A stretch of 64,000 bases of DNA, taken from the NCBI GenBank assembly GCA_024398125.1, contig JAKSJO010000001.1, positions 124,001 to 188,000 on the forward strand, written 5' to 3'. The stretch comes from Bacteroidales bacterium (GTDB lineage Bacteria > Bacteroidota > Bacteroidia > Bacteroidales > UBA932). The notes under the pieces were generated by a model. It searched no databases. It was not told where the DNA came from and saw only the letters and a list, made by a program, of their open reading frames with translations. Below are positions 3,787-64,000 of the stretch, in pieces. The position numbers were made by a program, and so were the translations under genes. How positions within the stretch are numbered: the stretch's first letter is position 1; each line of letters begins with the position of its first letter.

Positions 3787-3937
3787 ATCGATAGTGTTCT
3801 TATCATTACAAATATATAAAAATAGAGGGATTTAGAAGCTGTGTTTTAGACAATCCAACTTCATTTCTCAAAAATCTGCTATAATTAATTTCGTGAATCA
3901 TTTGAAAACATCTTCTTAGTATTGATGACTCTTTTTG

Positions 3938-4342
3938 TCAGAGGGAAATGGAAATTAACTCACTGCCGAGACGGTGAAGTGCGTTCTCGATCTTCTTTCT
4001 CTGGGCTTCGCGTGGCTTGGAAAGCCCCTTGGCATAGTGCCAAAGCTGCTTTTGGTTGATGCCGGTAATCTTCTCAAGCCCCGATTTGGTGAAGATGCCC
4101 TGATATATTGTGAGCAGGCTCTGGATATCAAGCTCGAAGGTGATTTCATAGCCGCCTTCCAATGCTTCTGGAATATCGCAATTGAATTCCTTGCAGCTTG
4201 CCACGAACACGTCCAGGGCCTCGATTATCGAAGTCTTGATTTCGTCGATAGATGTTCCCGTTGCGGTTATTCCATCCACTTCACGGACGTACGCCGAAAA
4301 ATTACTGTCTGCCCGCTCGATGATTACTGTCACTGCTCCCAT
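3938..4342 (-). CDS. HicB-type antitoxin, apparently without HicA
   Basis: 134 residues. The N-terminal half has the partial RNase-H-like fold of HicB (VTVIIERADSNFSAYVREVDGI, then GTSIDEIKTSIIEALDVFV). The C-terminal half looks like a helix-turn-helix (LLTIYQGIFTKSGLEKITG, then INQKQLWHYAKGLSKP), as in the longer HicB proteins that repress their own promoter. A TACTTTTG box at 4366-4373 gives a short leader. The toxin gene hicA normally sits directly beside hicB. No frame resembling HicA (a small dsRBD-like protein with a catalytic His) is visible between this gene and either neighbour. Confidence 0.8.
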   Translation of the reverse strand: MGAVTVIIERADSNFSAYVREVDGITATGTSIDEIKTSIIEALDVFVASCKEFNCDIPEALEGGYEITFELDIQSLLTIYQGIFTKSGLEKITGINQKQLWHYAKGLSKPREAQRKKIENALHRLGSELISISL

Positions 4343-4365
4343 GTTTCATTATCAGTTATATGATG

Positions 4366-4373
4366 CAAAAGTA
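4366..4373 (-). promoter_or_regulatory. -7 box of the hicB-like gene
   Basis: The minus strand reads TACTTTTG followed by C, matching the Bacteroidota TAnnTTTG consensus. It lies about 24 bases ahead of the start codon at 4342. Confidence 0.5.
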
Positions 4374-4512
4374 ACTAAAATTCTATGATTTGTACATAAG
4401 TGATAGAACTTCAGATTCTATTGCCCTGTCGCATTTGTTCTTATTGTGGAAAAAGCGTATTTTGGGGTGGAATGAATCTGGCCAACATGGCTGGATGTAA
4501 ACATTTTTGATT

Positions 4513-4779
4513 ATGTGCACAAAGAAGACATTGTATTTGGCTGGTGGCGAGGGACGTGTAAGTCTTCGTGCCAGGGAGCGTGGAGGAAAGCTGAACTTCG
4601 CGCAGATTTGTTATACCACGGATTGCGTACGCGAGGTGGCCAATCGACTGAATATGCCTATGGCTTCGGCTATCGGTGTGCTTAGGGAGAGGGGAGCCTT
4701 TATCAAGATCTATCGTGAGGCTAGAAAGAGAGAGCAGAAATCTGCCCGTGCCATGGCCCGCGAACTGCTGACGACGTAA
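4513..4779 (+). CDS. DUF3791-like small protein
   Basis: 88 residues from the ATG at 4513; a TTG two codons earlier is less likely. The middle part (FAQICYTTDCVREVANRLNM, then ASAIGVLRERGAFIKIYREARK) fits the short all-helical DUF3791 family, which commonly precedes DUF3990 genes in Bacteroidota. The C-terminus is basic. Twelve bases separate it from the DUF3990 gene. I infer a role as antitoxin or partner of that gene from co-occurrence only. Confidence 0.55.
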   Translation: MCTKKTLYLAGGEGRVSLRARERGGKLNFAQICYTTDCVREVANRLNMPMASAIGVLRERGAFIKIYREARKREQKSARAMARELLTT

Positions 4780-4790
4780 TCCGCGAGACT

Positions 4791-5264
4791 ATGGCAAATA
4801 TTTATCTGTACCATGGTACAGGTTTACGCATCGAGTCTCCAAGGTGGGACTTGGGCGATTTCGGCCGTGATTTTGGTCGTTGCTTCTATACAACCTATGA
4901 TCGTAGGACTGCGATTGATTGGGCCAGAAAGAATCATAAGGATAATCCAACGGTGAATAAGTACTCTATAGACTTTGAACGTCTTACTGATGGAAGTCTG
5001 AATGTGAAGCGTTTCAGTGCCGATGCAGAATGGGCTGAGTTCGTATGGAGAAACCGCTATGACAGAAGGTTCAAGCGTCCTGATTATGATATCATCATTG
5101 GACCGATGGCCGACAGGGGATTGAAGGAACAGTTCATGAAGATGAGGACAGAAGGAAAGACATTTTCTGAGGTTGCACCTCTGATTCATTACGACAAATT
5201 CCAATCGATGCAGGTCTGTTTCTGTTCGGACTATGCAATTGACATGTTAAACCTAATTGACTGA
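4791..5264 (+). CDS. DUF3990 protein, probable ADP-ribosyltransferase-like toxin
   Basis: 157 residues. It opens with IYLYHGTGLRIESPRWDLGD, followed by DFGRCFYTTYDRRTAIDWA, the hallmark of DUF3990: a Y-H-G motif, an aromatic-rich F-Y-T-T strand and a WA helix. The later part has WAEFVWRNR and DIIIGPMADRG, also conserved in the family. The arrangement resembles ADP-ribosyltransferase folds, in which Y-H-G would be the NAD-binding first motif; the enzymatic activity is an inference. It sits between two small all-helical proteins in a tight trio (gaps of 11 and 6 bases), a toxin-antitoxin-like layout. Confidence 0.72.
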   Translation: MANIYLYHGTGLRIESPRWDLGDFGRDFGRCFYTTYDRRTAIDWARKNHKDNPTVNKYSIDFERLTDGSLNVKRFSADAEWAEFVWRNRYDRRFKRPDYDIIIGPMADRGLKEQFMKMRTEGKTFSEVAPLIHYDKFQSMQVCFCSDYAIDMLNLID

Positions 5265-5270
5265 TACAAT

Positions 5271-5471
5271 ATGGTTACTAAGTACAGTGTGCTTGACTAT
5301 ACGGTGAAGGTATTGGTCGAGTCTCTCATGAAGAAATATGACTGCAGTTATGATTCAGCCTTGGAAATGGTCTTGAACAGTCAACTGTATGCTCAACTGC
5401 TCGCAAATCCCCATTTACAGGAAGAGGGAGACATCTACCTCTTCAATCTTCTCGACAAAGAGGTCAGATGA
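5271..5471 (+). CDS. Small helical partner protein of the DUF3990 gene
   Basis: 66 residues, predicted helical and acidic at the end (EEGDIYLFNLLDKEV). The phrase VKVLVESLMKKYDCSYDSALEMVL followed by a Q-L-Y segment resembles the small protein that often follows DUF3990 genes. It starts six bases after the DUF3990 stop and is followed by a strong hairpin, so it closes the trio. No function is demonstrated in the sequence; an antitoxin role is possible. Confidence 0.55.
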   Translation: MVTKYSVLDYTVKVLVESLMKKYDCSYDSALEMVLNSQLYAQLLANPHLQEEGDIYLFNLLDKEVR

Positions 5472-51062: not shown

Positions 51063-51602
51063 CTAGAGGAGTTTGAGGGTTTCGGTTTTGTTGCTTGTGC
51101 ATTCCAGGGCAGGAAGGATGTTGGTGAGACGTGTCTCGAAATCCTTGTCGAGGAAACTGGTGTAGCTGCCTTCTACAATCTGGTGCACATGCTGCTTCAG
51201 TTGTTCGTCAGCTATGATCGTTCCGGTCATCTTTGCCTGACCGCTGAGGTAGTCGCGAAGCATTGCCTCGCTGTCGGCTTTTATGGATGCCTCGTTGCGG
51301 AAAACCTTGTCGTAGTCTTTTTTCTGAACCAAGACCAGCTTGTCTCCGTTGAAGGCGTAGAGCTCAAGGCTGTCGATGTAGGTCCAGTTGTGGTACATTC
51401 CCACTGTTTCCGCGAAGACCACTCTGTCACAGAAGCGTACGCCTCTGTAGTAACGGTGGCCGGAAGCACTTTCGTACTCGTCGATGATGAACATCTTCTG
51501 TGAGTTGTCGTAGCCGTTGATCTTGACTTTGCGTGCGTTTCCGTATGTTGGAAGGACGCTGTCTAGGAAGTTCTGGTTGATTGCTTTCTGCAAGTTTGCC
51601 AT
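51063..51602 (-). CDS. Unrecognised protein, paralogue of the preceding 156-residue protein
   Basis: 179 residues. It shares an alpha/beta core with the gene just upstream: YDNSQKMFIIDEYESASGHR, followed by YYRGVRFCDRVV, WTYIDSLELYAFNGDKLVL, and the best-matching block DYLSGQAKMTGTIIADEQL (upstream copy: DYLASQAKLSGSSIPDSQL). The C-terminus is longer than in the paralogue. No known motif or catalytic residue is visible. It sits directly ahead of the helicase gene with a 3-base gap. Confidence 0.6.
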   Translation of the reverse strand: MANLQKAINQNFLDSVLPTYGNARKVKINGYDNSQKMFIIDEYESASGHRYYRGVRFCDRVVFAETVGMYHNWTYIDSLELYAFNGDKLVLVQKKDYDKVFRNEASIKADSEAMLRDYLSGQAKMTGTIIADEQLKQHVHQIVEGSYTSFLDKDFETRLTNILPALECTSNKTETLKLL

Positions 51603-51621
51603 GTTCGTGTCGGTTTGAGGG

Positions 51622-52092
51622 TTAGGCGATTCTTTTTTTTTCGGTTTCTTCGATGAGTCCCTTTGAGAACTCGAGAAGCTGAGAGTCAGGTATGCTGGAG
51701 CCTGAGAGCTTGGCCTGACTTGCGAGGTAGTCCTTGACGAGGCTGAGCGCTATGTCTTTGACTTTGCTGTCGCTGAAGAAGGTGGTGCAAGGGCTTGTCC
51801 AGTTGCCGAGAAGGCGTGACTGATGTCCATCCCATCCGTAGATGGAGAGGCCATTGAGGAAGAGGTACGCGTAGCCTTGGCCAAGACTGCAACTGATGCA
51901 GAGCCTATCCGAGAGACGGTACGTCTTGTAGTAGGTGTTGCCTGCAGTGCTGGTATAGCCTGAGGTGAGGAAGATGTTCTTGTCAGCGTTGTAGCTGACT
52001 GAGTCGCCAGAAAGGCATGGGAGGGCTCTTTCTGCGAGGGTTGCGAGCTGCTTGTTGTTGACTGCACTCAGTGTTGTGTTCTTCTTTTCCAT
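51622..52092 (-). CDS. Unrecognised protein, first gene of the helicase operon
   Basis: 156 residues. The N-terminus MEKKNTTLSAVNNKQ is shared in pattern with two other genes that have the same promoter cassette. The rest, with SYNADKNIFLTSGYTSTAGN, YYKTYRLSDRLCIS, LFLNGLSIYGWDGHQSRLLG and DYLASQAKLSGSSIPDSQL, matches the next gene as a tandem paralogue. No known family is recognised. A lysine-arginine tail (EETEKKRIA) ends it. It is transcribed from the promoter at 52264-52271. Confidence 0.6.
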   Translation of the reverse strand: MEKKNTTLSAVNNKQLATLAERALPCLSGDSVSYNADKNIFLTSGYTSTAGNTYYKTYRLSDRLCISCSLGQGYAYLFLNGLSIYGWDGHQSRLLGNWTSPCTTFFSDSKVKDIALSLVKDYLASQAKLSGSSIPDSQLLEFSKGLIEETEKKRIA

Positions 52093-52338
52093 TTTCGATG
52101 GGATTGGAAGTTCGACTTTTTGAACCGACTTCGCTTGAGTTGATTCTCAAGCCCCGTTGCCCCGGTTCGTTAGGCATTCGGCAGAAATAATAAATAGGTA
52201 TAGTCGAGTGCAGTATTTCAACGAGCTTTTTGCATATCAGCCTGTTGCGGCTTGATTGCGGATGCAAATATAGATAGAGTTTTGCATCTTGCAAGTGGTT
52301 TGGGGGAGAGGATTGGTTCCAAGCGCCAGGAACCAATC
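52093..52338 (-). promoter_or_regulatory. Promoter cassette 1: palindrome, promoter and structured leader
   Basis: Reading on the minus strand: the palindrome GATTGGTTCC-N8-GGAACCAATC (52311-52320 and 52329-52338), a TTG -33 element, TATATTTG at 52264-52271, then a leader of about 165 nt. The leader has a closing stem TCGACT/AGTCGA (52202-52207 with 52112-52117), an inner stem GAACCG/CGGTTC (52163-52168 with 52122-52127) and an apical hairpin GCTTGAG/CTCAAGC (52133-52139 with 52146-52152). Two further copies lie upstream of the next two genes. Confidence 0.65.
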
Positions 52339-52353
52339 TGCTGCTTTTTTCGA

Positions 52354-52752
52354 TTAGTAAGTGCCGTACTTACTTGGGCGGGAAAGATCGTGCCTGAGCT
52401 TGTCAAGGCTGATGATAGCCGTTGTGAATTCTCCGCCGTGCTGCTGGAGCCAGACCCAGCAGGGAATCTTAGTCTTTTCGGTTTCGCTGAAAATCCACCA
52501 GTCACAGTTGGCTATCTTGGTGCCCCAATGGTTGGAGCGTCGGATGATGCATCGTCCTAACTTCCAGTAGGTGGATGTTATGTTGCCGTTGCGGTCTGTG
52601 CTGTTGCGGATGAACTCTGCGCCTTCAGGCACTTCATCAATTTTACACCAGCATCCAACAGTTCCGTCGAAGTAGTTCTCGAAGGTGGTGGCAAGGAAGC
52701 CGGTTGTTGTGTTGTTGGTTGCTGCACTCTGTGTTCTGTTTGCTCTTTCCAT
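52354..52752 (-). CDS. Unrecognised small protein with cassette-type N-terminus
   Basis: 132 residues. The start MERANRTQSAATNNTTTGFL recalls the MEKKNT-type start of the two genes with the same promoter cassette. The remainder is rich in Trp and Cys (GTVGCWCKIDEVPEGAEFI, YWKLGRCIIRRSNHW, ANCDWWIFSETEKTKIPCWV, then WLQQHGGEF) and looks like a small beta protein, perhaps metal-binding through Cys. No family is recognised. It is a single gene with its own promoter. Confidence 0.55.
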   Translation of the reverse strand: MERANRTQSAATNNTTTGFLATTFENYFDGTVGCWCKIDEVPEGAEFIRNSTDRNGNITSTYWKLGRCIIRRSNHWGTKIANCDWWIFSETEKTKIPCWVWLQQHGGEFTTAIISLDKLRHDLSRPSKYGTY

Positions 52753-52966
52753 GTTATGTAGGGTTTGAGAGTTGACCTTTTCGAGCCGGCTTGCTCTTGG
52801 GTTAGTTTTCCCGGAGTGATGCCCGCGACTCGTTCGGGCGATCTGAAATAATAATAGATAAAGGTCGAGTGCAGTATGTCAACGAACTGGGTGCAAATCT
52901 ATCGCATTTTCAGAGACTTGCAAAGGACTTGGATTGGAGGATTGGTTCCTTGAGATTGGAACCAAT
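52753..52966 (-). promoter_or_regulatory. Promoter cassette 2: palindrome, promoter and structured leader
   Basis: The palindrome ATTGGTTCC-N8-GGAACCAAT lies at 52941-52949 and 52958-52966. The promoter is TTTG, 19 bases, then TAGATTTG (52894-52901), a near-ideal Bacteroidota promoter. The leader closing stem is GACCTTT/AAAGGTC (52860-52866 with 52774-52780), one C-G pair longer than in copies 1 and 3. The inner stem is CGAGTCG/CGGCTCG (52826-52832 with 52782-52788). The remaining bases to 53087 show nothing else. Confidence 0.65.
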
Positions 52967-53087
52967 ACATGGGTCAAAAGAGTTACGCTGAACAAATTAT
53001 TTCTCGAAAAGACTTCACCGTTTCTTTCTTCTGTTTTGCAAGTGTACTTTGACTGCTCTTTTCCGGACTGTGCCCACCAAGAGACCT

Positions 53088-53657
53088 TCAAGATACTAAA
53101 CACCTATATTTCTCCCAGGAAGATATGTGCCAACCATGACAGCTTTCGCAGTAGTAGGCAAAGAGACGGCCTGACTCTGCACGATTGAGGACGTTTTCGT
53201 ATGTAATGTAGCGTTCGGCCGCTTCGTATGTTTCAAAAAGGACCTTGGGACGACCGTACTTCGAACAGTAGGTCTTGCACCTGATACGGCAGGAATTGTC
53301 GTCACCATCCTTCTTGCGCATCTTGACCTTTTCGTTGCGGGATGCTGTGGCGCGTACCTTTTCGCGTTTGCGATCCGTACGGACACGTCTGATGGCAAGG
53401 TGGGAATTGACGGTCATCCTCTTGGCTTCATCTGAGTTGCGGAGGAGGCATTCTAGGTCTACAACGTCAGCGAGTTCAGGTGTGCGGGCAATCGACCATA
53501 CGTGTTCCTCACCGGCAACGGGGGAGAGACGGCCCTTTGTTACGCGGCTGATGCTCCTGCTGTTGCGGGCTATCATCCTGCGCAGTGCGGTTTCACCGGA
53601 GAAGGTGGGTGTGTTGAAGAATTTGACAGTTGCACTCATTGTGTTCTTCTTTTCCAT
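53088..53657 (-). CDS. Small basic zinc-ribbon protein with cassette-type N-terminus
   Basis: 189 residues from the ATG at 53657; the open frame continues upstream into the leader and is not used. The start MEKKNTMSATVKFF resembles the other cassette genes. The middle is strongly basic (RRVRTDRKREKVRATASRNE). The end has paired Cys and His: SCRIRCKTYCSKYG and YYCESCHGWHISSWEK, a zinc-ribbon pattern often found in small proteins of phages and plasmids. Nucleic-acid binding is likely; the target is unknown. Confidence 0.6.
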   Translation of the reverse strand: MEKKNTMSATVKFFNTPTFSGETALRRMIARNSRSISRVTKGRLSPVAGEEHVWSIARTPELADVVDLECLLRNSDEAKRMTVNSHLAIRRVRTDRKREKVRATASRNEKVKMRKKDGDDNSCRIRCKTYCSKYGRPKVLFETYEAAERYITYENVLNRAESGRLFAYYCESCHGWHISSWEKYRCLVS

Positions 53658-53906
53658 TTTTGTCTGTGGTTGGAAGTTCGACTTTTGAACCAATTGGGCG
53701 GGAGAGAATTCTCTCGACGTCTCGATGTCCTGGCTCGTGGGCAATCGATTCAAATAAATAATAATGAAAGTCGAGTGCTGCGTATCTAAGAACTATGTCG
53801 CTGACCTGTGTCGTTTGTTTCAGGTCAACGGATGCAAAGGTAGACAAGTTTTTTAGACATGCACAAGGTTGTCTGTTGAAGATTGGTTCCTGAGGGCAGG
53901 AACCAA
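53658..53906 (-). promoter_or_regulatory. Promoter cassette 3: palindrome, promoter and structured leader
   Basis: The palindrome TTGGTTCC-N8-GGAACCAA lies at 53883-53890 and 53899-53906, and the -7 box TACCTTTG at 53835-53842. The leader closing stem is TCGACTTT/AAAGTCGA (53767-53774 with 53678-53685), the inner stem GAGCC/GGTTC (53732-53736 with 53687-53691), with an apical GAGAG/CTCTC hairpin near 53702-53715. The palindrome-to-promoter distance matches the other two copies to within one base. Confidence 0.65.
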
Positions 53907-53925: not shown

Positions 53926-55026
53926 TTATTTTTTAGTTCTTATTCCATATCGCCAAGCGAGATGCTCAACCTTTATTTGAATTTCTTCGCGTAAAGAGGA
54001 TGGCGAAATGACTTCAAGATCCGGTCCGAAAGTGAGGACCTTACCGATAAATTCTCTATTGGGTTCCAAATCATACGAAATCAAGCCATAAGGGTATTTA
54101 TCATCCTCATGTGACGAATAGGTGCTGAGTTCAGAGAATGATTTATGGAATGGTTTCGTAACCATCAAACCATGTACGTATGATGATCTAGTTTTGATGA
54201 CTATATGCTGAATATTTCCGTCAGGTTCGTGTGTTACCCCAACAATGTTATTGAAATAAGACTTAAAGAACCCCGAAGTAGCGGGAATATATTTGACTTC
54301 TGATGGCTCAATCTGACTGACAATCCGGTCCAAAGCATAAACGTCTACAGCACGTTCACTGCCTTCCTTGATGCCAAGAACAAACCATCTTCCGTTGTAC
54401 TCTTTAAGATATTGGGGATGGAGTATTATATGCTCTTGATGTTTACCAAACTGACAGTAATCAAATGAAATGGACATTTCCTCATCAATGTAGTCATATA
54501 ATTGAGGAAGAAGGTCTATGTTCTTTAGAATCTGTTCATTGGAAGCGCCAATAAATAATTTACCCTCACGTTCTTCTTTGAGAGTCTCCCCGAGAATCTG
54601 AGTGCCATCAAAGAATGTCGAGAACCATCCTGGGGGCAAAAGTCCAATGGTACCTTTGCAGAAACGAATGTAATCAGTAATAGTCTGTTTGCGAGACATT
54701 GAACGTTCATCAGCAAATGGGTCTTCAATTGCTCCAACGTATCGATATGCAATACCTTTCTTTTTCCCATTATCCTCAATGCTGCCTGGTACTTTGTCTC
54801 TTAGAGCTTTGAGAACGATAGCAAAGGCTTTTTTCAGTTCGCTATAATGTTCTACTTTTGAAAGTGTGTTTCTGACAAAGTATGATTCATCAACACAGAG
54901 ATGCTTCGCCATTTCCCCAGCATATGTAATCCAATTGCGAGATATGAAACTCTCGTATATTTGGACGCATAGCTGGGCAACACAACTGCCATTCTCAAAA
55001 AAGGAATAATATCCGGAATTCATCAA
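53926..55026 (-). CDS. WYL-domain protein, third gene of the ATPase operon
   Basis: 366 residues. The N-terminal half is helical and may contain a helix-turn-helix (MAKHLCVDESYFVRNTLSKV). A WYL domain follows with HPQYLKEYNGRWFVLGIKEG at 203-222 and ALDRIVSQIE after it. The C-terminal extension (FGPDLEVISPSSLREEIQ, then KVEHLAWRYGI) is also typical of WYL regulators. WYL domains bind nucleic acids or nucleotides and control several phage-defence systems. The ATG overlaps the stop of the ATPase gene by four bases. It may repress the operon, or sense the trigger and signal to the ATPases; which one is open. Confidence 0.82.
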   Translation of the reverse strand: MMNSGYYSFFENGSCVAQLCVQIYESFISRNWITYAGEMAKHLCVDESYFVRNTLSKVEHYSELKKAFAIVLKALRDKVPGSIEDNGKKKGIAYRYVGAIEDPFADERSMSRKQTITDYIRFCKGTIGLLPPGWFSTFFDGTQILGETLKEEREGKLFIGASNEQILKNIDLLPQLYDYIDEEMSISFDYCQFGKHQEHIILHPQYLKEYNGRWFVLGIKEGSERAVDVYALDRIVSQIEPSEVKYIPATSGFFKSYFNNIVGVTHEPDGNIQHIVIKTRSSYVHGLMVTKPFHKSFSELSTYSSHEDDKYPYGLISYDLEPNREFIGKVLTFGPDLEVISPSSLREEIQIKVEHLAWRYGIRTKK

Positions 55027-56924
55027 ATGGACTCAATTTCTATGTTTACAGCATAGTAGAACTTTCTTCCAGAACCATCGGGATGAGGTCTGTCCCTTTT
55101 ATCAAAGACAACACGATCGCCATCCCTAAGACCATCCGAAATACAATGCTCGGCCTTATAATAGAAGGTTCTTCCGTTTTCTGAGTACTCAACGCTATCA
55201 TTTCTGCCATCACGTCCAGACTTAAATACTCCATGACTCATTATAGCCTGTCTGCTGCCTGGTGAGTATACAGGAGGAAGTTGACGACCTCCGTTTTCCC
55301 AATGTTTTATTTTGTTTAGAATGAGAGCGCAGTAATCCTTTGCCTGATTCTTATCCTCTTCACTCAAGATGTAATTGTTCGTATGGGCATATGGTCGTCG
55401 AACCTTCATTAGATAGTCGAATACTGTTTCCCACTGCGCGGCTGCAGAGCCAATATTTATGTGAGATTGAGGCAGATCATTCTCAGTAATATCAGTAAAA
55501 ATTGTGGCAAACCAACAGTTCCAATAACGCTTGATAAACTGGTAGTATATTTCACCGGTCTCCGCAAAAGAGACAGGAGATGAGATGTTGGCATTATAAT
55601 AGACTCTCTGATTTGTGGCATAGATGCTTTTCATCTTTCTCCACCTTGCAAGCCAATCAGAGTCGTTCTGGTTCTCAACTTCTATAATGGATTGCCAGTT
55701 TATTCCATACCTGTTTTTGGCAAAGAACTCTACAATATCTCTAAGTTTATTCTCAGTATTAGTCCACTCTGCCCAGTAATCTATCTGTAAATAGAACTTT
55801 GCATAGAATAATTGAGTGAAGTAATCAGAGAAAAGAATGTAGGTGACATCGTTTTCTCTAATACTTGGATATGAACGATTAAGAAGATCAGACTTGTATG
55901 CGACAGTGACTTCTCGTAAAAATCCATAGTCAATCAGTCTATCTACGCTAATCTTATTTATTGATTTTGCAGGGCCAATAACTACTTGAGTGACATCATC
56001 AAGTAATTCCTTGTCTTGAAGGATATCCAAGAGCTGTTCAAACTCGTCATACAACCTTTCAAGTAAATCTCTGTTATCTAGTAAGTTTGCATCGGGATGT
56101 TCCAGATAGCTTTGACAGCACAGATCCAAAAACATCGGGTGGTTGCCTGCAATATAAGAGATGCTTTGCTTTATTTTGGAATCTATTTCAAGTCCATTTT
56201 GGGATAGCCTGCTCCAGAAGCATGAAAGGTCTTCTTCGCCAAAGGGTTTCAAATGAATCTGTGTATTAAATGTCCCGTAGAAATTTGAGAGAGAAGAATC
56301 TTTTGCTTCAATCTCTTTAATGGCCTTCCTGGACACCACTACATATGAAAGATTAGTCTCAGGTACGTAGGCAGTTTCTCTCAAGAGCAGAAGATCTCCT
56401 TTGTCGAGGATTGATTCACTCTTGTCAAACTCGTCAAGAATATAGATAATGCCATATCCGGCATTCAGATTCAGTTCTTCAAAGAAATCCTGGAATGAGT
56501 ACTTAAGATCCTTTATGCTGCAAGACGAGATTTCTTCAGCGATTGAAAAGATATTTGACGATGCCGACCTCAATTCGGAGGTGCTGTCTGATTCAACTCG
56601 AAGTACAGCACGTATCTCCTTAACTGCTTTCTGGATAAGAGTTTGGAAGAAGTCAAGATTTGATGAACATGAACCGACATCAACATATACTGGGAACAGC
56701 TTGCGTGTAGAAATAATCTCTGCCTTCTTTGATATGAGCGCTTCCCATGCGAGACTGGATTTTCCTATTCGTGGCAAACCGGTAATTGCAATGTCACCAC
56801 GATTATTAATCGCGGTTTGAAGGATTGTACGTATTTCATTCTGCCTTCCAACAAATCGAGCCCCTGTAACGATTTTGCCAGTTTTTTCGAATAAGGCAAG
56901 GAATTGGTCCTGCGTGTTGTACAT
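55023..56924 (-). CDS. STAND-like P-loop ATPase with C-terminal OB/cold-shock-like domain
   Basis: 633 residues. The start GARFVGRQNEIRTILQ is the preamble of AAA/STAND-type ATPases. Walker A is AITGLPRIGKSSLAWE (Lys55) and Walker B IIYILDEFDKSE (Asp164, Glu165). YVVVSRKAIKEIE is a sensor-like segment, and a helical lid with GNHPMFLDLCCQSYLEHP follows. After a long helical region, the last 65 residues or so (GVFKSGRDGRNDSVEYSENG, then TFYYKAEHCISDGLRDGDRV and VFDKRD) look like a cold-shock-type OB fold, which would bind single-stranded nucleic acid. The gene lies 11 bases after the 1399-residue ATPase gene. Codon use is A/T-rich compared with the chromosome. Confidence 0.75.
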   Translation of the reverse strand: MYNTQDQFLALFEKTGKIVTGARFVGRQNEIRTILQTAINNRGDIAITGLPRIGKSSLAWEALISKKAEIISTRKLFPVYVDVGSCSSNLDFFQTLIQKAVKEIRAVLRVESDSTSELRSASSNIFSIAEEISSCSIKDLKYSFQDFFEELNLNAGYGIIYILDEFDKSESILDKGDLLLLRETAYVPETNLSYVVVSRKAIKEIEAKDSSLSNFYGTFNTQIHLKPFGEEDLSCFWSRLSQNGLEIDSKIKQSISYIAGNHPMFLDLCCQSYLEHPDANLLDNRDLLERLYDEFEQLLDILQDKELLDDVTQVVIGPAKSINKISVDRLIDYGFLREVTVAYKSDLLNRSYPSIRENDVTYILFSDYFTQLFYAKFYLQIDYWAEWTNTENKLRDIVEFFAKNRYGINWQSIIEVENQNDSDWLARWRKMKSIYATNQRVYYNANISSPVSFAETGEIYYQFIKRYWNCWFATIFTDITENDLPQSHINIGSAAAQWETVFDYLMKVRRPYAHTNNYILSEEDKNQAKDYCALILNKIKHWENGGRQLPPVYSPGSRQAIMSHGVFKSGRDGRNDSVEYSENGRTFYYKAEHCISDGLRDGDRVVFDKRDRPHPDGSGRKFYYAVNIEIESI

Positions 56925-56935
56925 GTTATTGGATA

Positions 56936-59900
56936 TTACAATGAATGTTCTTTAATTGAAGCTAACTCTGGAGACTGATTTTGAAGCCATTGTTGGAACA
57001 GTTTGACTTTAATCCTATAAAGTCCGGCTTTCTCCTCGATGACTTCACGTGCTTTAAGGTTGTCAAGCACTTTCCTGACGAGTTCAAGTTCATTCTCAAG
57101 CAGCTCATCCTTGAAGAAATGAGCGATACTTGTTTCTGAGCAGAATTCATCACTCTTTGTCAGTATGGCAATCCTGTACAGTACAGCCACAAGAGTCTTT
57201 TCGGTAATTCCCTCAATTTCAATAGCATCTCCCGGGCTGATAAGATTGTCAAAATCTGGCATATCCATAGAAGCAATTATTTTATTTGCAGTTACGGCAA
57301 CATCTGCCTTTGTTGCAACCATTGCATGCTTCTTATTCATATCTCCTACAAGGTTGCTGCATATCAGCTGAATGTAGTAAGGGTTGCACGCTGAATAATC
57401 AAGAATATGCTCAACTGCTCCAGATGCATACCTGTCTTTGCCAATAGGGGATTCCACCAATGCGCGAGCATCTACTTCATCAAGATAGTTTAGGCGGAAT
57501 GCTTCCATCATCTGGAATACATTCTTGGCATATACTTCATTCTTGAAGTACGGAATAACGTCTTGACCAACAAGAACAGATGCAAATGACGAATCTGGAT
57601 CTTGAATCACACTCTTCCACTGCTGAAGGATGGTTGGATTTACGGTCCCTTGCTTAATTCCAGTATATAGGTATGTGAACTCATCAATCATAATGACAAC
57701 AAGTTTATTCTCCCATCCTGGAGTTTCCTTGCAGGCATCCTTAAATGCAATCATATATGAAGCAAATGATAGACCTGGATTGGTAGGGTTCTCTGCCTCA
57801 AAATCAGTAGGGGTAGGAATGTTGAAGTCAGGTTTTTCTCCTTGAATCCTTCTCAATGCACGATGGATGTTCTTCAAAATAAGATAGAAGAAAGATGCGC
57901 TGCTTATGTCACCACCTGAACGAAGAATACCAAGAGAAAAACGCACGCAGAATGCACCGGAATTCTTGAGCTCATTTTCAAGCCAGTACAGAACCGATGA
58001 TTTACCACTTCGTTTTTGTCCGTAGAATACAAGTTGTTTTGATTTGGATGAATTCATGACGTTTACCAGATTACTGATGAAAGCGTCACGGCCAAAGAAC
58101 ATATCTCTATTCTCTACAGTGTCACCAGCGTTGTATGGATTGTCGAACGGTTCATACTCAGATTCTGAATAGAAGCGTACTGACAAAGCCTTTTCGCAAT
58201 TCTCAATTGTGTTATTTGTGCTTTCATACGAACAGATAACAGAGATGGAAATAGCTTTTGCTTCAACGTACTGCTTGTTTATGTCAAGCTCAATATGGAA
58301 GATAATAGGATCGTCTCCACCTTTAAGCATCTCGAGATATTCTCCTTCAACACATCTCCAAGAGTCTATTTCAGGACTCTCTGCTATAGATATGCTTAGA
58401 CGGCTTACAGGAGACGAGTCTTTATCATTGGCAACTTCAATCTGGAGAGCAACAGTATTGTTCTCATCTTTGTATGCGTATTCAGTAAGAAGGGCAATAT
58501 TTAGATTAGGCTCACTACTGATAACAATATTTTCCCAAGCTTCCGTAAGAAGAATCTGGAAACGAAGGAGAAGAGGCAGGACTGCTTCATACGAGAATTT
58601 AGTTGGATATTCACGGATTGTGTGAATCAATCCTTGGAGAATTCGGCTTGAGTCTTGATAATTGTTTTCCTTGTTAATGAAGCCTGGAGTAATGTTAAAC
58701 GCTTCAATCTTTGGGATGAGTACTTTGAATGTCTCTCTAACAACATCGCTGTCTTGTGCAGATAACCAGGAGACTCTGCATTCCTGTTGAAGGGAATCCA
58801 TACTAGCGGTTAATTTCTGCAATGAGGAGTGCTCAAGTCTTGCAAGGAATGAATTGCAAAGTGCCCTCTCGGAGGCAAAGCGTTCTTCAATCAATTCATA
58901 CCATACGGTCTCGAACTTCTCTTTTGCATCGTTTGAAGATAAAGATTTTCCTGTCGAACTTGACTCTTCGGCAAAAGACTTTCTAAGTTGTTCGTCATCA
59001 TATATGGCCGAGATTACCCTATTGGCAATCTGCTCATTGTACAATGATGGATGAAGCAGACTGTTAAGCCAATCGAATTCAGGTGCACAATTCAAGACAA
59101 GATCATGGATGTCTTGTTTCATACGGTTCTCCTGTTCGCCTTGTGGCAACTTGCCAAATATTGCATCTTTCTTATCCGGAATCAGGGTTTCCAAATATTG
59201 AATGAACTGTCTTCGATTTGATGACCAGTCGGTTGTGAGAGAGAAAGATTCGTTGAAGTAGAAACGAACCACATCCCATTTGATTGAGTTAGGGTCTTTC
59301 AGCATAGATACACGAGCCATATCATTACAGTAAAGTGCAACGTCTCGTTTATCGTATGCTCCGTTATTCATCCTCATGTCAAGTTTTATCTTGGTCAACA
59401 AAAGAGGAGATCTTCGGGCACTATCTGATTGGACATCGGATTCATCAAGCAAATCCACAAGGGCATCGTATGTAGGCTTACTATACAACCTAGCCTCGTC
59501 TAATCGCACATAGTTAACCACGCCGACAAAATCAGTGTATCTTTCAATAGTATCGCTCAGATAAGCTCCGATAGGATTATCAGAAAGCTCTGCTCCATCC
59601 AACAGATCGGAAATATTTAAATCTTCATTGCTTCCTAAGATTTGATCTTTTAATCGTCTAGCCGTGTTATTGGACGAATCAAGTCGCAAAACCTGGTTAA
59701 TCACATCTTCTGCCTCATGTTTTCTCTTAAGAGCTAAGAGTACCACGGCCTTCTTATTAAGGAATATTACGCGTTGAGATGGACCCTTTGTCTCAATAAG
59801 ACGGTCTACTACTGCAAGATATTTATCGTATTCATGCAATACATAGTATGTCGACTCCAAAAAATGATAGGTCGATTGACCTTTCGGTAGCCTGTCAACA

Positions 59901-61135
59901 TTGTTTTTAAGGAATTCTGCACCTTCTCTTCTGTATGTGTATACGTTAGGCTTATCCTCAGGGTGACTCTCTATGTATTTCTTACTGCAGAGAGTGCAAT
60001 ACTGCATTCCAATATCTTTGATATAAGCTACGCTTTTTTGCGCTTCATATGCCTTCAGATAGTGTTGCAAAGCTTCTTTATGGCGCTTGTTGTTGACGCA
60101 CTGCTTTGCTTTTGTGTATTCCTCGGTTGCTTTCTTATTCTTCTCGATAGACTTGTCGTGACTCTTTGGGTCGTATGTTTTGGCTTCTTTCAAAGCATCT
60201 AAATCAAGAGGTATGGAAAGGGAGTGGATCTGGCGTTTTTTGAATGCTCCTTTCAATTCTTGGATCAGATATTTTGCGTCCTCATTCTCAGGGTTGTGAG
60301 CCAATACGTCCTGAAGAAGATCATAAGCATTTTGCTTCGTTGTAGGTTCATCGGAAAGATCATCGGCCAAGGCTAGAATTTCATAAACTGGACGTGGTAA
60401 TGTTATACCAACAGCCTTGACACCCCTGTTGTCATTTATTTTAATGTAAGACACACGCTTACCAACCCAAGACTCACAATCATAAAGGACGTCATCACAA
60501 ATGTCTTCAGCAATGAATCCAATTTCAGATTCAAGTCCCTGGTCCCAGATATATCCTTTGTCTTTATTATCAGCTACGATATAGCCGCAAGCCTCAATCA
60601 TCTGATCATTCTCGTCTTCAGACTTGTAGGATGACACAAGGGAACTAAGTCTATTGTCAAGAGTCGCTTCCGGTTGATCCAGAAGGGCTAACTCCCTAGG
60701 ATCGTGCTTGATGTTAGGCCTCTTTCCCTTCTGGGGATCAACTTTGTCAAGGTCTATCCAGCCAAGAATATGTCCTGGCTGTCCAGGTTTACTTTCTATG
60801 ATAGGGGAAGCCGGTTGTTGCTCAACATGTTTCGTGTCTTGTTCTTCCTTGCCTTCAGAAATTTCGTTCAAAGGAACCTTAGTCGCTTCTGTTGCGGCTA
60901 CATCTGAAGTTTCAGTTATAGGGGTAGATGCTGCTTCTGGTTTTGAGCTAACATGTTTCTTGAACGAAACAATTTCGGAGCCTGGAATATATTCTTCGTC
61001 ACCATCTGCATTTTGTATGATAACTGTGTCCTCGTCTATTTCAAGAACTGTTCCTGAGAATGAATCGCCAGACTTTGTCTTGAAAGAGACAACGTCATTA
61101 ACAACACATCTTTTTTTGATAATGTCAAAAGTCAT
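56936..61135 (-). CDS. Very large multidomain ATPase: SH3-like, OB-like, TPR and AAA modules
   Basis: 1399 residues. Order: an SH3/Sm-like barrel at 8-62 (VVSFKTKSGDSFSGTVLEID, then TVIIQNADG); a polar linker; an OB/cold-shock-like stretch near 180-255 (YIVADNKDKGYIWDQGLESE, then IGFIAEDICDD); TPR helices at about 330-500 (ALQHYLKAYEAQKSV, AEDVINQVLRLDSSNN); a long unrecognised helical region; a beta-sandwich; and an AAA domain introduced by FDNPYNAGDTVENRDMFFGR, with Walker A YGQKRSGKSS (Lys1045) and Walker B VVIMIDEFTYLY (Asp1151). A winged-helix-like end follows. This is the architecture of conflict-system NTPases, with sensor repeats ahead of a switch ATPase. No nuclease, TIR or membrane effector is apparent. 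Confidence 0.75.
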   Translation of the reverse strand: MTFDIIKKRCVVNDVVSFKTKSGDSFSGTVLEIDEDTVIIQNADGDEEYIPGSEIVSFKKHVSSKPEAASTPITETSDVAATEATKVPLNEISEGKEEQDTKHVEQQPASPIIESKPGQPGHILGWIDLDKVDPQKGKRPNIKHDPRELALLDQPEATLDNRLSSLVSSYKSEDENDQMIEACGYIVADNKDKGYIWDQGLESEIGFIAEDICDDVLYDCESWVGKRVSYIKINDNRGVKAVGITLPRPVYEILALADDLSDEPTTKQNAYDLLQDVLAHNPENEDAKYLIQELKGAFKKRQIHSLSIPLDLDALKEAKTYDPKSHDKSIEKNKKATEEYTKAKQCVNNKRHKEALQHYLKAYEAQKSVAYIKDIGMQYCTLCSKKYIESHPEDKPNVYTYRREGAEFLKNNVDRLPKGQSTYHFLESTYYVLHEYDKYLAVVDRLIETKGPSQRVIFLNKKAVVLLALKRKHEAEDVINQVLRLDSSNNTARRLKDQILGSNEDLNISDLLDGAELSDNPIGAYLSDTIERYTDFVGVVNYVRLDEARLYSKPTYDALVDLLDESDVQSDSARRSPLLLTKIKLDMRMNNGAYDKRDVALYCNDMARVSMLKDPNSIKWDVVRFYFNESFSLTTDWSSNRRQFIQYLETLIPDKKDAIFGKLPQGEQENRMKQDIHDLVLNCAPEFDWLNSLLHPSLYNEQIANRVISAIYDDEQLRKSFAEESSSTGKSLSSNDAKEKFETVWYELIEERFASERALCNSFLARLEHSSLQKLTASMDSLQQECRVSWLSAQDSDVVRETFKVLIPKIEAFNITPGFINKENNYQDSSRILQGLIHTIREYPTKFSYEAVLPLLLRFQILLTEAWENIVISSEPNLNIALLTEYAYKDENNTVALQIEVANDKDSSPVSRLSISIAESPEIDSWRCVEGEYLEMLKGGDDPIIFHIELDINKQYVEAKAISISVICSYESTNNTIENCEKALSVRFYSESEYEPFDNPYNAGDTVENRDMFFGRDAFISNLVNVMNSSKSKQLVFYGQKRSGKSSVLYWLENELKNSGAFCVRFSLGILRSGGDISSASFFYLILKNIHRALRRIQGEKPDFNIPTPTDFEAENPTNPGLSFASYMIAFKDACKETPGWENKLVVIMIDEFTYLYTGIKQGTVNPTILQQWKSVIQDPDSSFASVLVGQDVIPYFKNEVYAKNVFQMMEAFRLNYLDEVDARALVESPIGKDRYASGAVEHILDYSACNPYYIQLICSNLVGDMNKKHAMVATKADVAVTANKIIASMDMPDFDNLISPGDAIEIEGITEKTLVAVLYRIAILTKSDEFCSETSIAHFFKDELLENELELVRKVLDNLKAREVIEEKAGLYRIKVKLFQQWLQNQSPELASIKEHSL

Positions 61136-61408: not shown

Positions 61409-61828
61409 TTACTCCAGGAGGTCAGTCATTTCGCGTACCATATCGTCATCGATGTCGCGGTAGCGGGTGAATGCTCTCGAGTGCTCAGAGTGGCCAGAGA
61501 TCTTGCCGACGAGGCATGGATCTTTGACCTTTTTGTAGAGGTTGACGACGAAGGTTCTACGGGCCATGTGCGATGATGCTACCTCGTAGATAGGGTGCTG
61601 CTCGCTTTCTCCGGTGGACGGATTGATGACGGTGACCATGCGGTCTATGCCGGCTAGCTCTAAGACTCTGCGGATTCCTCGATTGAGTTTGTTCTTGTCA
61701 TAGTATGGTATCAGATAGTTCATGCGACGGCCTTTGTGGCGTTCCAGGATCTCGAGTGCTGTCTTGGTGAGGTAAACCTTGACTACGCGTGGCTTCTTGT
61801 CTTTCGTTTTGCCAGGGATGTATAGGAT
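61409..61828 (-). pseudogene. 5'-truncated tyrosine recombinase (integrase)
   Basis: The frame keeps the catalytic C-terminal part: SSHMARRTFVVNLYKKV (the H-x-x-R box), GKISGHSEHSRAFTRYRDID (the G-H and the nucleophile Tyr). Upstream it reads on through ILYIPGKTKDKKPRVVKVYL followed by TKTALEILERHKGRR, to a stop at 61829-61831, just before the tandem repeats begin. The N-terminal domains and the first catalytic Arg are gone, so it cannot be active. It belongs to the family of Bacteroidales transposon integrases and shows that the region arrived by site-specific integration. Confidence 0.8.
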
Positions 61829-62066: not shown

Positions 62067-62181
62067 ATCGAACGTATGTGAGGTGCTTATCTCTCACTGT
62101 CGATGCATATCACAGGTCCAAATATACAACATTGTTTTGAAATGGCAAATTTATATATCTGCATGTAGTAGATCTATTGCT

Positions 62182-62545
62182 GAGTCATACATCTCATCTG
62201 ATTGCCAGACTCTCTCTTATCTGGACAAGTATTTTGGACAATTCGCCCTTGCAGTCAGGCGAAATAAATAAAAAATCAGGAGGAAAACGAAAGCTTTCCT
62301 CCTGATTGATTTTTCTCGCGAAGCGAATCCGCATCAGCGGATCGGCCGTGCCGTGTATTTGTGAGTTTACGAACAAATACGGAAAGGCGAAAAGGCCGTA
62401 GGGGTTGCAGGGGGAGTGTCTCCCCCTTATATAATTCTGTCTCCCCCTTATTTTACAAACTGTCGCCGAAGTCTGCCTTGAGCTTCTCGACGAGTTTCTC
62501 CTGCCAGTTGCCGATCTCCTTCATGCGGACGAAGAAGAAGCGGAG
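62182..62545. repeat. Direct repeat, copy A (364 bp)
   Basis: It matches 63561-63903 over its whole length, with a 21-base insertion at 62431-62451. The 117 bases from 62314 to 62430 are identical in both copies, while the rest differs at scattered positions. It includes a terminator-like hairpin (AATCAGGAGGAAA/TTTCCTCCTGATT at 62274-62307), several smaller inverted repeats, and the last 31 codons of a gene. Confidence 0.85.
62453..62545 (-). pseudogene. Duplicated 3' end of the gene at the right window edge
   Basis: It reads LRFFFVRMKEIGNWQEKLVE followed by KLKADFGDSL and a stop. The intact copy at 63811 differs in two residues. Homology stops sharply at 62545 and no upstream part exists, so this is a remnant. 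Confidence 0.8.
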
Positions 62546-62625
62546 CACAGCGGGCTTCGCACTAGTTTGCACTAGACTTTGAAAGAATAAACATCACAAA
62601 GGGGTGACATGTGACAGAAAAGTCG

Positions 62626-62948: not shown

Positions 62949-63494
62949 ATGGTGGCGTATGAACTTAAAAGGCTCGAGGCTGGAAGTGTGATTGAAGGCT
63001 TCGACTGTGGCAATGAGGATATAAATGGTTTTCTGGCTGAGGATGCCAGAGACTATCAGGATGGACTCATGGCTGTGACTTATCTGGCTGTCGGCGGCGA
63101 GGATAAGGATCTTGTGGCTTATTTCTGTTTGCTAAACGATAAATTGGCTTATCTTCCTGGTGATGATAAGAAGGCCTGGAATCGTCTGAACAGAAAAGTG
63201 AATAACAGGAAGCGGATGAAGAGCTATCCTGCCGTGAAAATCGGTCGTCTGGGGACTTCTATTAAGTATGCAAGACAAGGTGTTGCTCGCGAATTGATTG
63301 ATCTTGTGAAATTGCGCTTTGCCGTGAATAACCGTACGGGATGTCGATTCCTGACGGTTGATGCTCATCGGGATGCAATCGGGCTGTATGAGAAGTGTGG
63401 CTTTTCTTTTTTCACAGAAAGTGATAGGGATGAGGAAACTCGACTGATGTATTTTGACCTGAAGCTTTTCAGTGATGCTTTGAAAAATGGATGA
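62949..63494 (+). CDS. TacT-like GNAT acetyltransferase, probable toxin
   Basis: 181 residues. It shows the pattern of GNAT toxins: GFDCGNEDINGFLAEDA near the start, VAYFCLLNDKLAYL in the middle, and VKIGRLGTSIKYARQGVARE, whose Gln/Arg-x-Gly-x-Gly/Ala segment binds acetyl-CoA. TVDAHRDAIGLYEKCGFSFF closes the fold with the catalytic Tyr. Relatives acetylate the amino group of aminoacyl-tRNAs and stop translation. The gene and its small partner are bracketed by the 350-bp direct repeats. Confidence 0.8.
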   Translation: MVAYELKRLEAGSVIEGFDCGNEDINGFLAEDARDYQDGLMAVTYLAVGGEDKDLVAYFCLLNDKLAYLPGDDKKAWNRLNRKVNNRKRMKSYPAVKIGRLGTSIKYARQGVARELIDLVKLRFAVNNRTGCRFLTVDAHRDAIGLYEKCGFSFFTESDRDEETRLMYFDLKLFSDALKNG

Positions 63495-63560
63495 TATAGG
63501 TCACACTCATCTTACGCTGACGGTGATTCCCTCAGCTGAAGTACGTGCGATCTTTTTTCG

Positions 63561-63903
63561 GAGTCATACATCTCATCTGATTGCCAGACTCTCTCTTGCC
63601 TGGACAAGTATTTTGGACAATTCGCTCTTGCAGTCAGACGCAATAAATAAAAAATCAGGAGGAAAGTTTTCGTTTCCTCCTGATTGATTTTATCTCGCGA
63701 AGCGAATCCGCATCAGCGGATCGGCCGTGCCGTGTATTTGTGAGTTTACGAACAAATACGGAAAGGCGAAAAGGCCGTAGGGGTTGCAGGGGGAGTGTCT
63801 CCCCCTTATTTTACAAACTGTCGCCGAAGTCTGCCTTGAACTTCTCGACGAGCTTCTCCTGCCAGTTGCCGATCTCCTTCATGCGGCCGAAGAAGAAGCG
63901 GAG
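63561..63903. repeat. Direct repeat, copy B (343 bp)
   Basis: This copy runs into the intact gene at the right edge and so is probably the original. The identical core is 63693-63809. It contains TCCGC/GCGGA, TATTTGT/ACAAATA and GGGGGAG/CTCCCCC inverted repeats, and a hairpin AATCAGGAGGAAA/TTTCCTCCTGATT at 63653-63685. Confidence 0.85.
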
Positions 63904-64000
63904 AACCTCAGGCTCCTCAACCCACTCGAGACCACCGATGAGGTTTCTGTTGTCCCAGAGCCACTTAACGCGGTCAGCACAGTACTTGATCTGTGAGAGT
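63811..64000 (-). CDS. C-terminal end of an unidentified gene (5' part beyond window)
   Basis: Sixty-two codons are visible and read LSQIKYCADRVKWLWDNRNL, then IGGLEWVEEPEVLRFFFGRM and KEIGNWQEKLVEKF before the stop at 63811-63813. Codon use matches the chromosome, and the reading is uninterrupted. I could not assign the family from this fragment. Its last 31 codons are duplicated at 62453-62545, so the element recombined within or next to its 3' end. Confidence 0.65.
   Translation of the reverse strand, partial: LSQIKYCADRVKWLWDNRNLIGGLEWVEEPEVLRFFFGRMKEIGNWQEKLVEKFKADFGDSL

What the first reader, a model, noticed from the sequence alone, without database searches (positions are those of the whole stretch)
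53926..61135. Candidate new conflict system: two large ATPases plus a WYL protein
Three tightly packed minus-strand genes (11-base gap, then 4-base overlap) encode a 1399-residue SH3/OB/TPR/AAA protein, a 633-residue STAND-like ATPase with an OB-type end, and a WYL-domain protein. They lie in a clearly acquired region next to an integrase relic. Both ATPases keep Walker A and B residues. WYL proteins accompany many phage-defence systems, and TPR plus AAA designs are common in conflict NTPases. I do not recognise this combination and see no classical effector domain, so the killing or blocking step would be new or hidden in the unrecognised middle of the large protein.
Basis: partly seen in the sequence, partly recalled or inferred. 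Interest (0 to 1): 0.85.

Follow-up and report, generated by a model that had tools for sequence, protein, structure and literature searches.

The report
Paired ATPase system gating RNA-cutting enzyme
This bacterium carries an apparently acquired two-gene module, seen patchily across many bacterial groups and a few archaea, in which a large sensor-like ATPase sits beside a second ATPase that ends in a predicted RNA-cutting domain, so it is probably an uncatalogued phage-defence or self-shutdown system.

Summary
The three genes exist as described. The core is the pair A (1399 aa) and B (633 aa); the WYL gene is an accessory (directly after B in 4 of 63 loci). In 5 of the 8 lacking it another candidate effector is seen (kinase, second HEPN-like motif, overlapping membrane-protein gene). 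A is SH3-like, cold-shock-type OB, TPR, Ig-like and STAND/ORC-type ATPase. B follows A in 58 of 61 loci from 12 phylum-level groups; two others are contig ends, one has a kinase-ended protein. A and B diverge together (r = 0.91). One protein joins A's sensor half to B's HEPN half. The module is patchy (1 of 199 genomes of its family). Four B genes stand alone. No PADLOC model covers either protein; in print I found one table line on HEPN fused to STAND/TPR/S1. Best reading: A senses infection or RNA stress and, using ATP, licenses B's RNase. Defence is inferred: neighbour enrichment over a control is modest, and no phage or plasmid copy was found.

The parts
56936..61135 (-). Gene A, 1399 aa: sensor-like STAND/ORC-type ATPase protein
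   Evidence: ORF; family profile hits AAA_22 31/33, nSTAND1 29/33, TPR_2 24/33, CSD 11/33 members
60956..61135 (-). A residues 1-60, SH3/Sm-like beta-barrel
   Evidence: weak MS_channel_2nd beta-domain match; the pattern recurs at the N-terminus of most of the 33 A proteins printed (by eye)
60386..60598 (-). A residues 180-250, cold-shock-type OB domain
   Evidence: PF00313 in 11 of 33 members; aligned stretch; profile built from 26 members also finds it in the window's A (partly circular)
59636..60088 (-). A residues about 350-500, TPR
   Evidence: TPR profiles in up to 24 of 33 members; PDB TPR proteins matched at profile positions about 440-590; window's A alone weak, residues 459-489
58160..58534 (-). 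A residues 868-992, Ig-like beta sandwich
   Evidence: by eye on the aligned family; no profile match
57236..58114 (-). A ATPase domain, residues about 1008-1300; Walker A 1039-1046, Walker B 1151-1152
   Evidence: AAA_22/nSTAND1/ATPase_2; G1039, K1045, D1151, E1152 in 33 of 33
55023..56924 (-). Gene B, 633 aa: STAND/ORC-type ATPase plus HEPN
   Evidence: ORF; next gene after A in 58 of 61 loci
56115..56858 (-). B ATPase, residues about 23-270; Walker A 49-56, Walker B 164-165
   Evidence: AAA_16 E 3.3e-6 and ATPase_2; B profile matches 2fna, plant NRC NLRs, Cdc6/ORC4
55281..55799 (-). B HEPN (Swt1-like) domain, residues 376-548; R509 at 55398-55400, H514 at 55383-55385
   Evidence: HEPN_Swt1 in 36 of 49 members at E up to 0.1; R and H in 52 of 60; region aligned
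55026..55247 (-). B tail, residues 560-633, OB-like
   Evidence: by eye; also in the closest relative L011, absent from most others; cold-shock profile did not confirm it
53926..55026 (-). Gene C, 366 aa, WYL plus WCX protein, probable regulator (accessory)
   Evidence: WYL 31.2 bits and WCX 25.9 bits, both above cut-off; relatives directly after B in L013, L048, L049
53883..53906 (-). hairpin after C, perfect 10-bp stem, 4-nt loop
   Evidence: sequence
61409..61723 (-). integrase relic upstream of the operon
   Evidence: Phage_integrase, 25.1 bits, below cut-off

Best explanation
A and B form one unit. A is the sensor: an SH3-like barrel, a cold-shock-type OB domain, TPRs and an Ig-like sandwich in front of a STAND/ORC-type ATPase. 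B is the effector: a second STAND/ORC-type ATPase that ends in a Swt1-like HEPN domain. Inferred mechanism: in the resting cell B's HEPN is held inactive. When A's OB/TPR part meets an infection- or stress-derived RNA, ribonucleoprotein or phage protein, A changes nucleotide state and engages B's ATPase; B assembles and pairs its HEPN domains, making an active R-x4-H endoRNase that cuts RNA (cellular, viral or both) and stops growth or phage multiplication. C (WYL) most likely sets expression of the operon, as the WYL regulators BrxR and CapW do for other defence operons. Shown here: the genes, the domains at family level, conserved ATPase and HEPN motifs, A-B linkage and parallel divergence, occasional effector change, one sensor-HEPN fusion. 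Inferred: RNase activity, the trigger, the direction of signalling, defence, regulation by C.
For: B follows A in 58 of 61 loci (56 by blastp; L045 by tblastn; L063 by its ATPase_2 and HEPN_Swt1 profiles); L058 and L071 end inside A, and L061 has a 644-aa protein kinase-ended protein there. In 52 of 56 measured pairs B starts within -100 to +20 nt of A's end. A and B distances correlate at r = 0.91 over 52 loci, against at most 0.26 in 2000 permutations. HEPN_Swt1 in 36 of 49 B proteins; R and H of R-x4-H both present in 52 of 60 B rows in a family of 26% mean column identity. Of the 8 without it: L061 kinase (Pfam), L057 kinase-like tail (by eye), L064 a second HEPN-like motif (by eye), L007 and L052 a short B overlapped by a gene with hydrophobic segments. 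One natural 650-aa protein (L117) joins A residues 1-507 (41% to L014 A) to B residues 381-528 (68% to L018 B) without either ATPase. Other effector-type genes sit 13-17 nt upstream of A: NYN-EAD11 in L021 and SIR2_2 in L043. Patchy distribution: 1 of 199 family genomes, low G+C, Campylobacterota inside a Bacteroidota set in the tree. Some neighbours are clear defence genes: GajB beside L050, NERD+UvrD beside L034, the PADLOC candidate helicase PDC-M16A 5-10 nt before A in L006, L015, L022, L023.
Against: Defence neighbourhood is weak: 59 PADLOC families among 121 near neighbours against 41 among 114 control proteins. No copy on plasmids, phages or viral contigs. In Poribacteria and Latescibacterota the module looks largely vertically kept, with ordinary neighbours such as a histone-deacetylase-family gene in 5 loci. 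Four intact B genes stand without A, so B does not need A. Among divergent pairs only (A distance above 0.6), the A-B correlation falls to 0.60. Of the 8 B rows without R-x4-H, L046 shows no replacement, L039 an unassigned tail, L026 is a broken gene.
Confidence: 0.6

Rival explanations
1. A-B is a stress or RNA quality-control device of the host, not a defence system: A's cold-shock-type/TPR part reads RNA or ribosome state and B's HEPN trims RNA during stress.
For: Cold-shock-type and TPR domains; a free-standing SH3-like/cold-shock/TPR protein in an ordinary gene context in L008, with relatives in 8 of 12 genomes of that genus; largely vertical pattern in Poribacteria and Latescibacterota; modest defence neighbourhood; no phage or plasmid copies.
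Against: Rare and patchy (complete A in 3 of 393 order genomes; 1 of 199 in the family), with exchange of the effector end in some members and occasional effector-type genes upstream; low G+C island by an integrase relic.
Confidence: 0.2
2. A and B are a toxin-antitoxin-like pair: B is the toxin and A restrains it.
For: Short gaps or overlaps and near-constant pairing from A's side; HEPN is a common toxin domain (PMC3710099, passages).
Against: Intact B genes with complete motifs stand alone in G016 (3 copies) and G036 (1 copy), with no A found in either genome by one A query; A is a large multidomain ATPase, unlike usual antitoxins (recalled).
Confidence: 0.1
3. An ORC/TniB-like function of a mobile element: the two ATPases handle DNA replication or target choice, and HEPN is a structural helical domain.
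For: Both ATPases resemble Cdc6/ORC in profile searches; 9 of 49 B proteins touch the TniB profile; an integrase relic lies upstream.
Against: R-x4-H is kept in 52 of 60 B rows, not expected of a purely structural helical bundle; no transposase or replication gene recurs among the clustered immediate neighbours; no copies on plasmids or phages.
Confidence: 0.05

Closest known systems
Swt1-like HEPN fused to STAND-ATPase, TPR, S1 (Npun_F6454, MED222_16016, Desac_1927) in Table 1 of Anantharaman et al. 2013 (PMC3710099; passages seen)
   Same: HEPN of the same Pfam-named family joined to a STAND ATPase, with TPR and an S1-type OB named in the same entry; called mostly active there
   Different: One table entry of fusions in the passages seen; the two-gene pair, the SH3-like/cold-shock/TPR/Ig-like/STAND partner, effector exchange and the WYL companion were not described there. 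Whether those three proteins are relatives of B was not tested (sequences not at hand).
STAND NTPase conflict systems with HEPN or GT4 effectors (Kaur et al. 2021, PMC8195603; passages seen)
   Same: A STAND module carries a HEPN effector at one end
   Different: That STAND module is stated to be inactive; here both ATPases keep Walker A and B, and two STAND proteins are paired
PADLOC candidates PDC-M34B and PDC-M16A
   Same: PDC-M34B models match the HEPN region of B proteins (best 1.6e-9 for L034); PDC-M16A matches the helicase 5-10 nt before A in four loci
   Different: PDC-M34B is about 150-190 positions long and covers only the HEPN part; no PADLOC model covered A or B over most of its length in the 3 window and 7 relative proteins (A or B) scanned
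WYL regulators BrxR and CapW of defence operons (PMC9122589, PMC9122588, PMC9122601; listing and start of abstract only)
   Same: WYL plus WCX protein in a probable defence operon
   Different: The N-terminal part of C gave no helix-turn-helix hit in Pfam and the four-member profile matched no solved structure
Type-1 BREX-related (DUF499) systems with N-terminal HEPN on the ATPase (PMC12839542; passages seen)
   Same: HEPN fused to a P-loop ATPase
   Different: No DUF499 family among the Pfam hits of A or B (lists capped at 25); HEPN is C-terminal here; no methyltransferase recurs among the clustered immediate neighbours

Membership tests
HEPN superfamily, Swt1-like | R-x4-6-H motif | tested here: met
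   RRPYAH at 509-514 of B; R and H in 52 of 60 B rows
HEPN superfamily, Swt1-like | matches the HEPN_Swt1 profile | tested here: met
   36 of 49 B proteins at E up to 0.1, best 8.4e-10; the window's B alone does not match
HEPN superfamily, Swt1-like | HEPN fold | not testable with these tools
   structure prediction switched off; no sequence match to solved structures
HEPN superfamily, Swt1-like | RNase activity | not testable with these tools
   needs the bench
STAND/ORC-type P-loop ATPases | Walker A and Walker B | tested here: met
   A 33 of 33; B K55 59 of 60, D164 56 of 60
STAND/ORC-type P-loop ATPases | profile similarity to STAND or ORC/Cdc6 | tested here: met
   nSTAND1 in 29 of 33 A and 22 of 49 B; B profile to 2fna, NRC NLRs, Cdc6, ORC4; A's own C-terminal profile matched no solved structure
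STAND/ORC-type P-loop ATPases | winged helix after the ATPase core | tested here: inconclusive
   conserved C-terminal block in A by eye; no profile hit
Catalogued defence systems in PADLOC 2.0 | A and B match the proteins of one listed system | tested here: not met
   window A and B: no hit at E up to 0.1; relatives: partial or weak hits only
BrxR/CapW-type WYL regulators | WYL and WCX domains | tested here: met
   both above Pfam cut-off
BrxR/CapW-type WYL regulators | N-terminal DNA-binding winged helix | tested here: inconclusive
   no Pfam hit in the first 170 residues of C
DUF499 / BREX-related ATPase-HEPN | DUF499-type ATPase | tested here: not met
   no DUF499 among the Pfam families shown (lists capped)

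The most novel reading that the evidence does not exclude
A bacterial sensor-helper pair of NLR-like ATPases: A is a dedicated sensor STAND protein that reads RNA or ribonucleoprotein through its cold-shock-type/TPR part, and B is a helper STAND protein that carries the killing domain (usually a HEPN RNase, sometimes exchanged). B can also work alone or serve other sensors (three solo B genes in one genome), echoing the sensor and helper NLR arrangement of plants.
Probability: 0.25. Interest if true: 0.85.

Novelty: new variant of a known kind. Interest (0 to 1): 0.66.

Why it matters
STAND ATPases with effector ends are a common ground of bacterial and eukaryotic immunity, usually studied as single proteins. 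A module in which a sensor ATPase is nearly always followed by a second ATPase with an RNase end, while the second also occurs alone, would make the question of how paired NLR-like proteins divide sensing and killing testable in bacteria. It also gives a predicted effector (HEPN) with two named residues to mutate, for a family that the PADLOC 2023 models do not cover.

Tried and rejected
The stretch of about 500-860 stays unassigned.

Known system: no PADLOC hit for window A or B. PADLOC on ten proteins of relatives gave partial hits only.

B's tail as a second cold-shock domain: a profile from A's domain did not confirm it.

Defence-island test: 121 of 343 neighbour proteins (150 aa or more, within 6 kb; nearest first) against 114 of 143 control proteins from 16 of 18 fetched stretches (two dropped because they adjoin STAND hits). 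59 against 41 families at E up to 1e-15. Only 25 families are listed per call, the control is from Bacteroidales-order kin only while the test set spans phyla, and many control hits look like housekeeping helicases and the like. I call it modest. In a follow-up of ten neighbours, 4 of 10 had hits.

Prevalence by profile in the phylum: A profile 2 of 395 and B profile 2 of 395 genomes, but the second hit of each was another kind of ATPase protein, so the module itself was seen only in the window's genome. Few candidates per genome are scored and TPR decoys compete, so these are lower bounds. The family count (1 of 199) also missed G550, whose A-type half is found by a closer query.

Direct repeats or inverted repeats as a WYL operator before A: weak pairs only; promoter scan at or below its shuffled mean.

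Empty-site search with the left flank: gave scattered partial matches and no clean empty site; not pursued.

Open-access library only.
Full report
What is there. The window has three packed minus-strand genes at the stated coordinates: A (1399 aa), B (633 aa) and C (366 aa). The block has 40-42% G+C against 45-55% for the 54 kb to its left. An integrase C-terminal relic lies upstream and a perfect 10-bp hairpin follows C.

Domains. In the window proteins alone Pfam sees only weak AAA/STAND matches in A and B, and WYL plus WCX in C. Relatives make it clearer. One scan of GTDB genome contigs with a three-row A profile gave 61 loci (two peptide patterns, so a lower bound). Of 33 aligned A proteins, 31 match AAA_22, 29 nSTAND1, 24 TPR_2 and 11 the cold-shock domain. 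The N-terminus is SH3/Sm-like and an Ig-like sandwich precedes the ATPase, both by eye. The stretch of about 500-860 stays unassigned. Of 49 B proteins chosen because they carry the C-terminal region, 36 match HEPN_Swt1 at E up to 0.1 (best 8.4e-10), 5 HEPN_SAV2148 and 2 Abi_2. The window's B is not among the matches on its own; it aligns with those that are. R509 and H514 are invariant in those 49 and present in 52 of all 60 aligned B rows. A profile of B's ATPase finds a Sulfolobus-type STAND protein (2fna), plant NRC NLRs, Cdc6 and ORC4 among solved structures (that 2fna is from Sulfolobus is recalled). Profiles of A's C-terminal part, of C, and of the HEPN region find no solved structure.

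The pair. B lies after A on the same strand in 58 of 61 loci: 56 by blastp (in L026 and L029 in pieces), L045 by tblastn, L063 by Pfam. L058 and L071 end inside A. L061 has at that place a 644-aa protein that ends in a protein kinase after a degenerate STAND-like part (by eye). One of the 61, L032, is the same contig as G052 found before. In 52 of 56 measured pairs the distance is -100 to +20 nt; the exceptions are L065, L067, L070 and the split L029. Pairwise distances of A and B correlate at 0.91 over 52 loci (permuted maximum 0.26 of 2000), falling to 0.60 for the 917 most divergent pairs. The rows span 12 phylum-level groups, many of them metagenome bins.

The effector end changes. Eight of 60 B rows lack R-x4-H. 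L061 ends in a kinase and L057 in a kinase-like tail (by eye). L064 has a second HEPN-like motif (by eye). L007 and L052 are short B proteins overlapped by a gene with predicted hydrophobic segments. L039 has an unassigned tail, L046 no visible replacement, and L026 is a broken gene. So 5 of 8 show another candidate effector. Directly before A sit a RecD-like helicase in four loci (5-10 nt), a NYN-EAD11 protein in L021 (17 nt) and a SIR2-like protein in L043 (13 nt).

A natural fusion. In G550, of the window's own family, a 650-aa protein joins A residues 1-507 (41% to L014 A) to B residues 381-528 (68% to L018 B), dropping both ATPases. It was seen in 1 of 13 genomes of that genus and no second one appeared in 228 order genomes, so an assembly error or a one-off deletion is not excluded. 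If real, it ties A's sensor half to the HEPN.

B without A. A search from the fusion protein found full-length B relatives with intact RNPLAHN motifs in G016 (three) and G036 (one) with no A beside them, and no A in those genomes by one A query. So A nearly always has B, but B can stand alone. This speaks against a simple toxin-antitoxin pair and for a helper-like or self-sufficient B.

Distribution. With the window's A as query, 5 of 393 order genomes match, of which three carry a complete A (own, G158, G052), one a free-standing N-terminal half (G277) and one an ATPase part only (G057). In the family it is 1 of 199, the window itself (this query missed G550). None on plasmids or phages with A, none on plasmids with B (B was not searched in phages), none on viral contigs. 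In a quick tree two Campylobacterota bins lie within a Bacteroidota set, and Saprospiraceae and Cytophagales bins carry near-identical A proteins, which suggests transfer; Poribacteria and Latescibacterota look largely vertical.

Neighbourhood. Among the 121 nearest of 343 neighbour proteins, 59 PADLOC families were hit at E up to 1e-15, against 41 families among 114 control proteins. Strong single hits near the module include GajB (9e-198, L050), NERD+UvrD (3e-133, L034), a partial MkoA (2e-59, L013) and PDC-M16A (3e-131, L006); the control's best was a dGTPase at 4e-68. This is suggestive, not strong.

The WYL gene. Relatives of C directly follow B in the window, L013, L048 and L049, 4 of 63 distinct loci. 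These sit at three separate places of the A tree. A WYL protein also lies on the other strand beside L068. The role is inferred from BrxR and CapW (listing and abstract starts).

Literature. Anantharaman et al. 2013 (passages) list under Swt1-like HEPN the fusions 'STAND-ATPase, TPR, S1 (Npun_F6454, MED222_16016, Desac_1927), mostly active'. They also mention bacterial proteins that combine N-terminal HEPN with STAND modules and sometimes cold-shock-like OB domains. Npun_F6454 occurs in no other paper of the library. Kaur et al. 2021 (passages) describe inactive STAND modules with HEPN or GT4. No paper in the listings describes the pair; the library is open access only.

Verdict. A conserved, patchily distributed two-ATPase module with a probable HEPN RNase end and exchangeable effectors. 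It works like a STAND-gated abortive-infection or RNA-cutting defence system; membership in a catalogued system was tested against PADLOC and not met. Confidence: functional unit A-B very high, HEPN identity high, defence role moderate.

Noticed in passing
L117 (G550:C85) 3354-5306: 650-aa fusion of A's SH3-like/cold-shock/TPR half with B's HEPN half, 13 nt before a 901-aa protein that looks like a SNF2-type helicase (by eye).
   Followed up: partly
L126, L127, L128 (G016) and L129 (G036): Four full-length STAND-HEPN B relatives with no A beside them; three in one genome.
   Followed up: partly
L008 10828-12297 (G277): Free-standing 489-aa SH3-like/cold-shock/TPR protein among ordinary genes; relatives in 8 of 12 genomes of its genus and 12 of 38 of its family. 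A may have borrowed its sensor half from such a protein.
   Followed up: partly
L006 11068-12507, L015 6547-7989, L022 726-2168, L023 351-1790: RecD-like helicase of about 480 aa, 5-10 nt before A; the L006 copy matches PADLOC candidate PDC-M16A at 3.2e-131.
   Followed up: partly
L116 5500-8682 (G701): 1060-aa protein with an A-like Ig/ATPase part and a phosphoribosyltransferase-like tail (by eye), in a locus that looks like a type I restriction system.
   Followed up: no
window 62177-62561 and 63556-63919: Two imperfect copies (93-99% in blocks) that include the 3' end of a tryptophanase-like gene, flanking a short ORF and a GNAT protein (62949-63494) that look like a toxin-antitoxin pair (names by eye except GNAT).
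   Followed up: partly
window 51063-53753: Four small minus-strand ORFs without Pfam hits, at least two starting MEKKNT (two of them more alike), between a PIF1-like helicase gene and gene C.
   Followed up: no
L062 3550-5034 and 11044-12354: Two related proteins flank the A-B pair; the upstream one carries an RNA polymerase alpha C-terminal-type domain.
   Followed up: no
L070 4818-8279: 1153-aa protein with an RNA-dependent RNA polymerase-type domain (RdRP, 3.8e-17) 9 nt after B.
   Followed up: no
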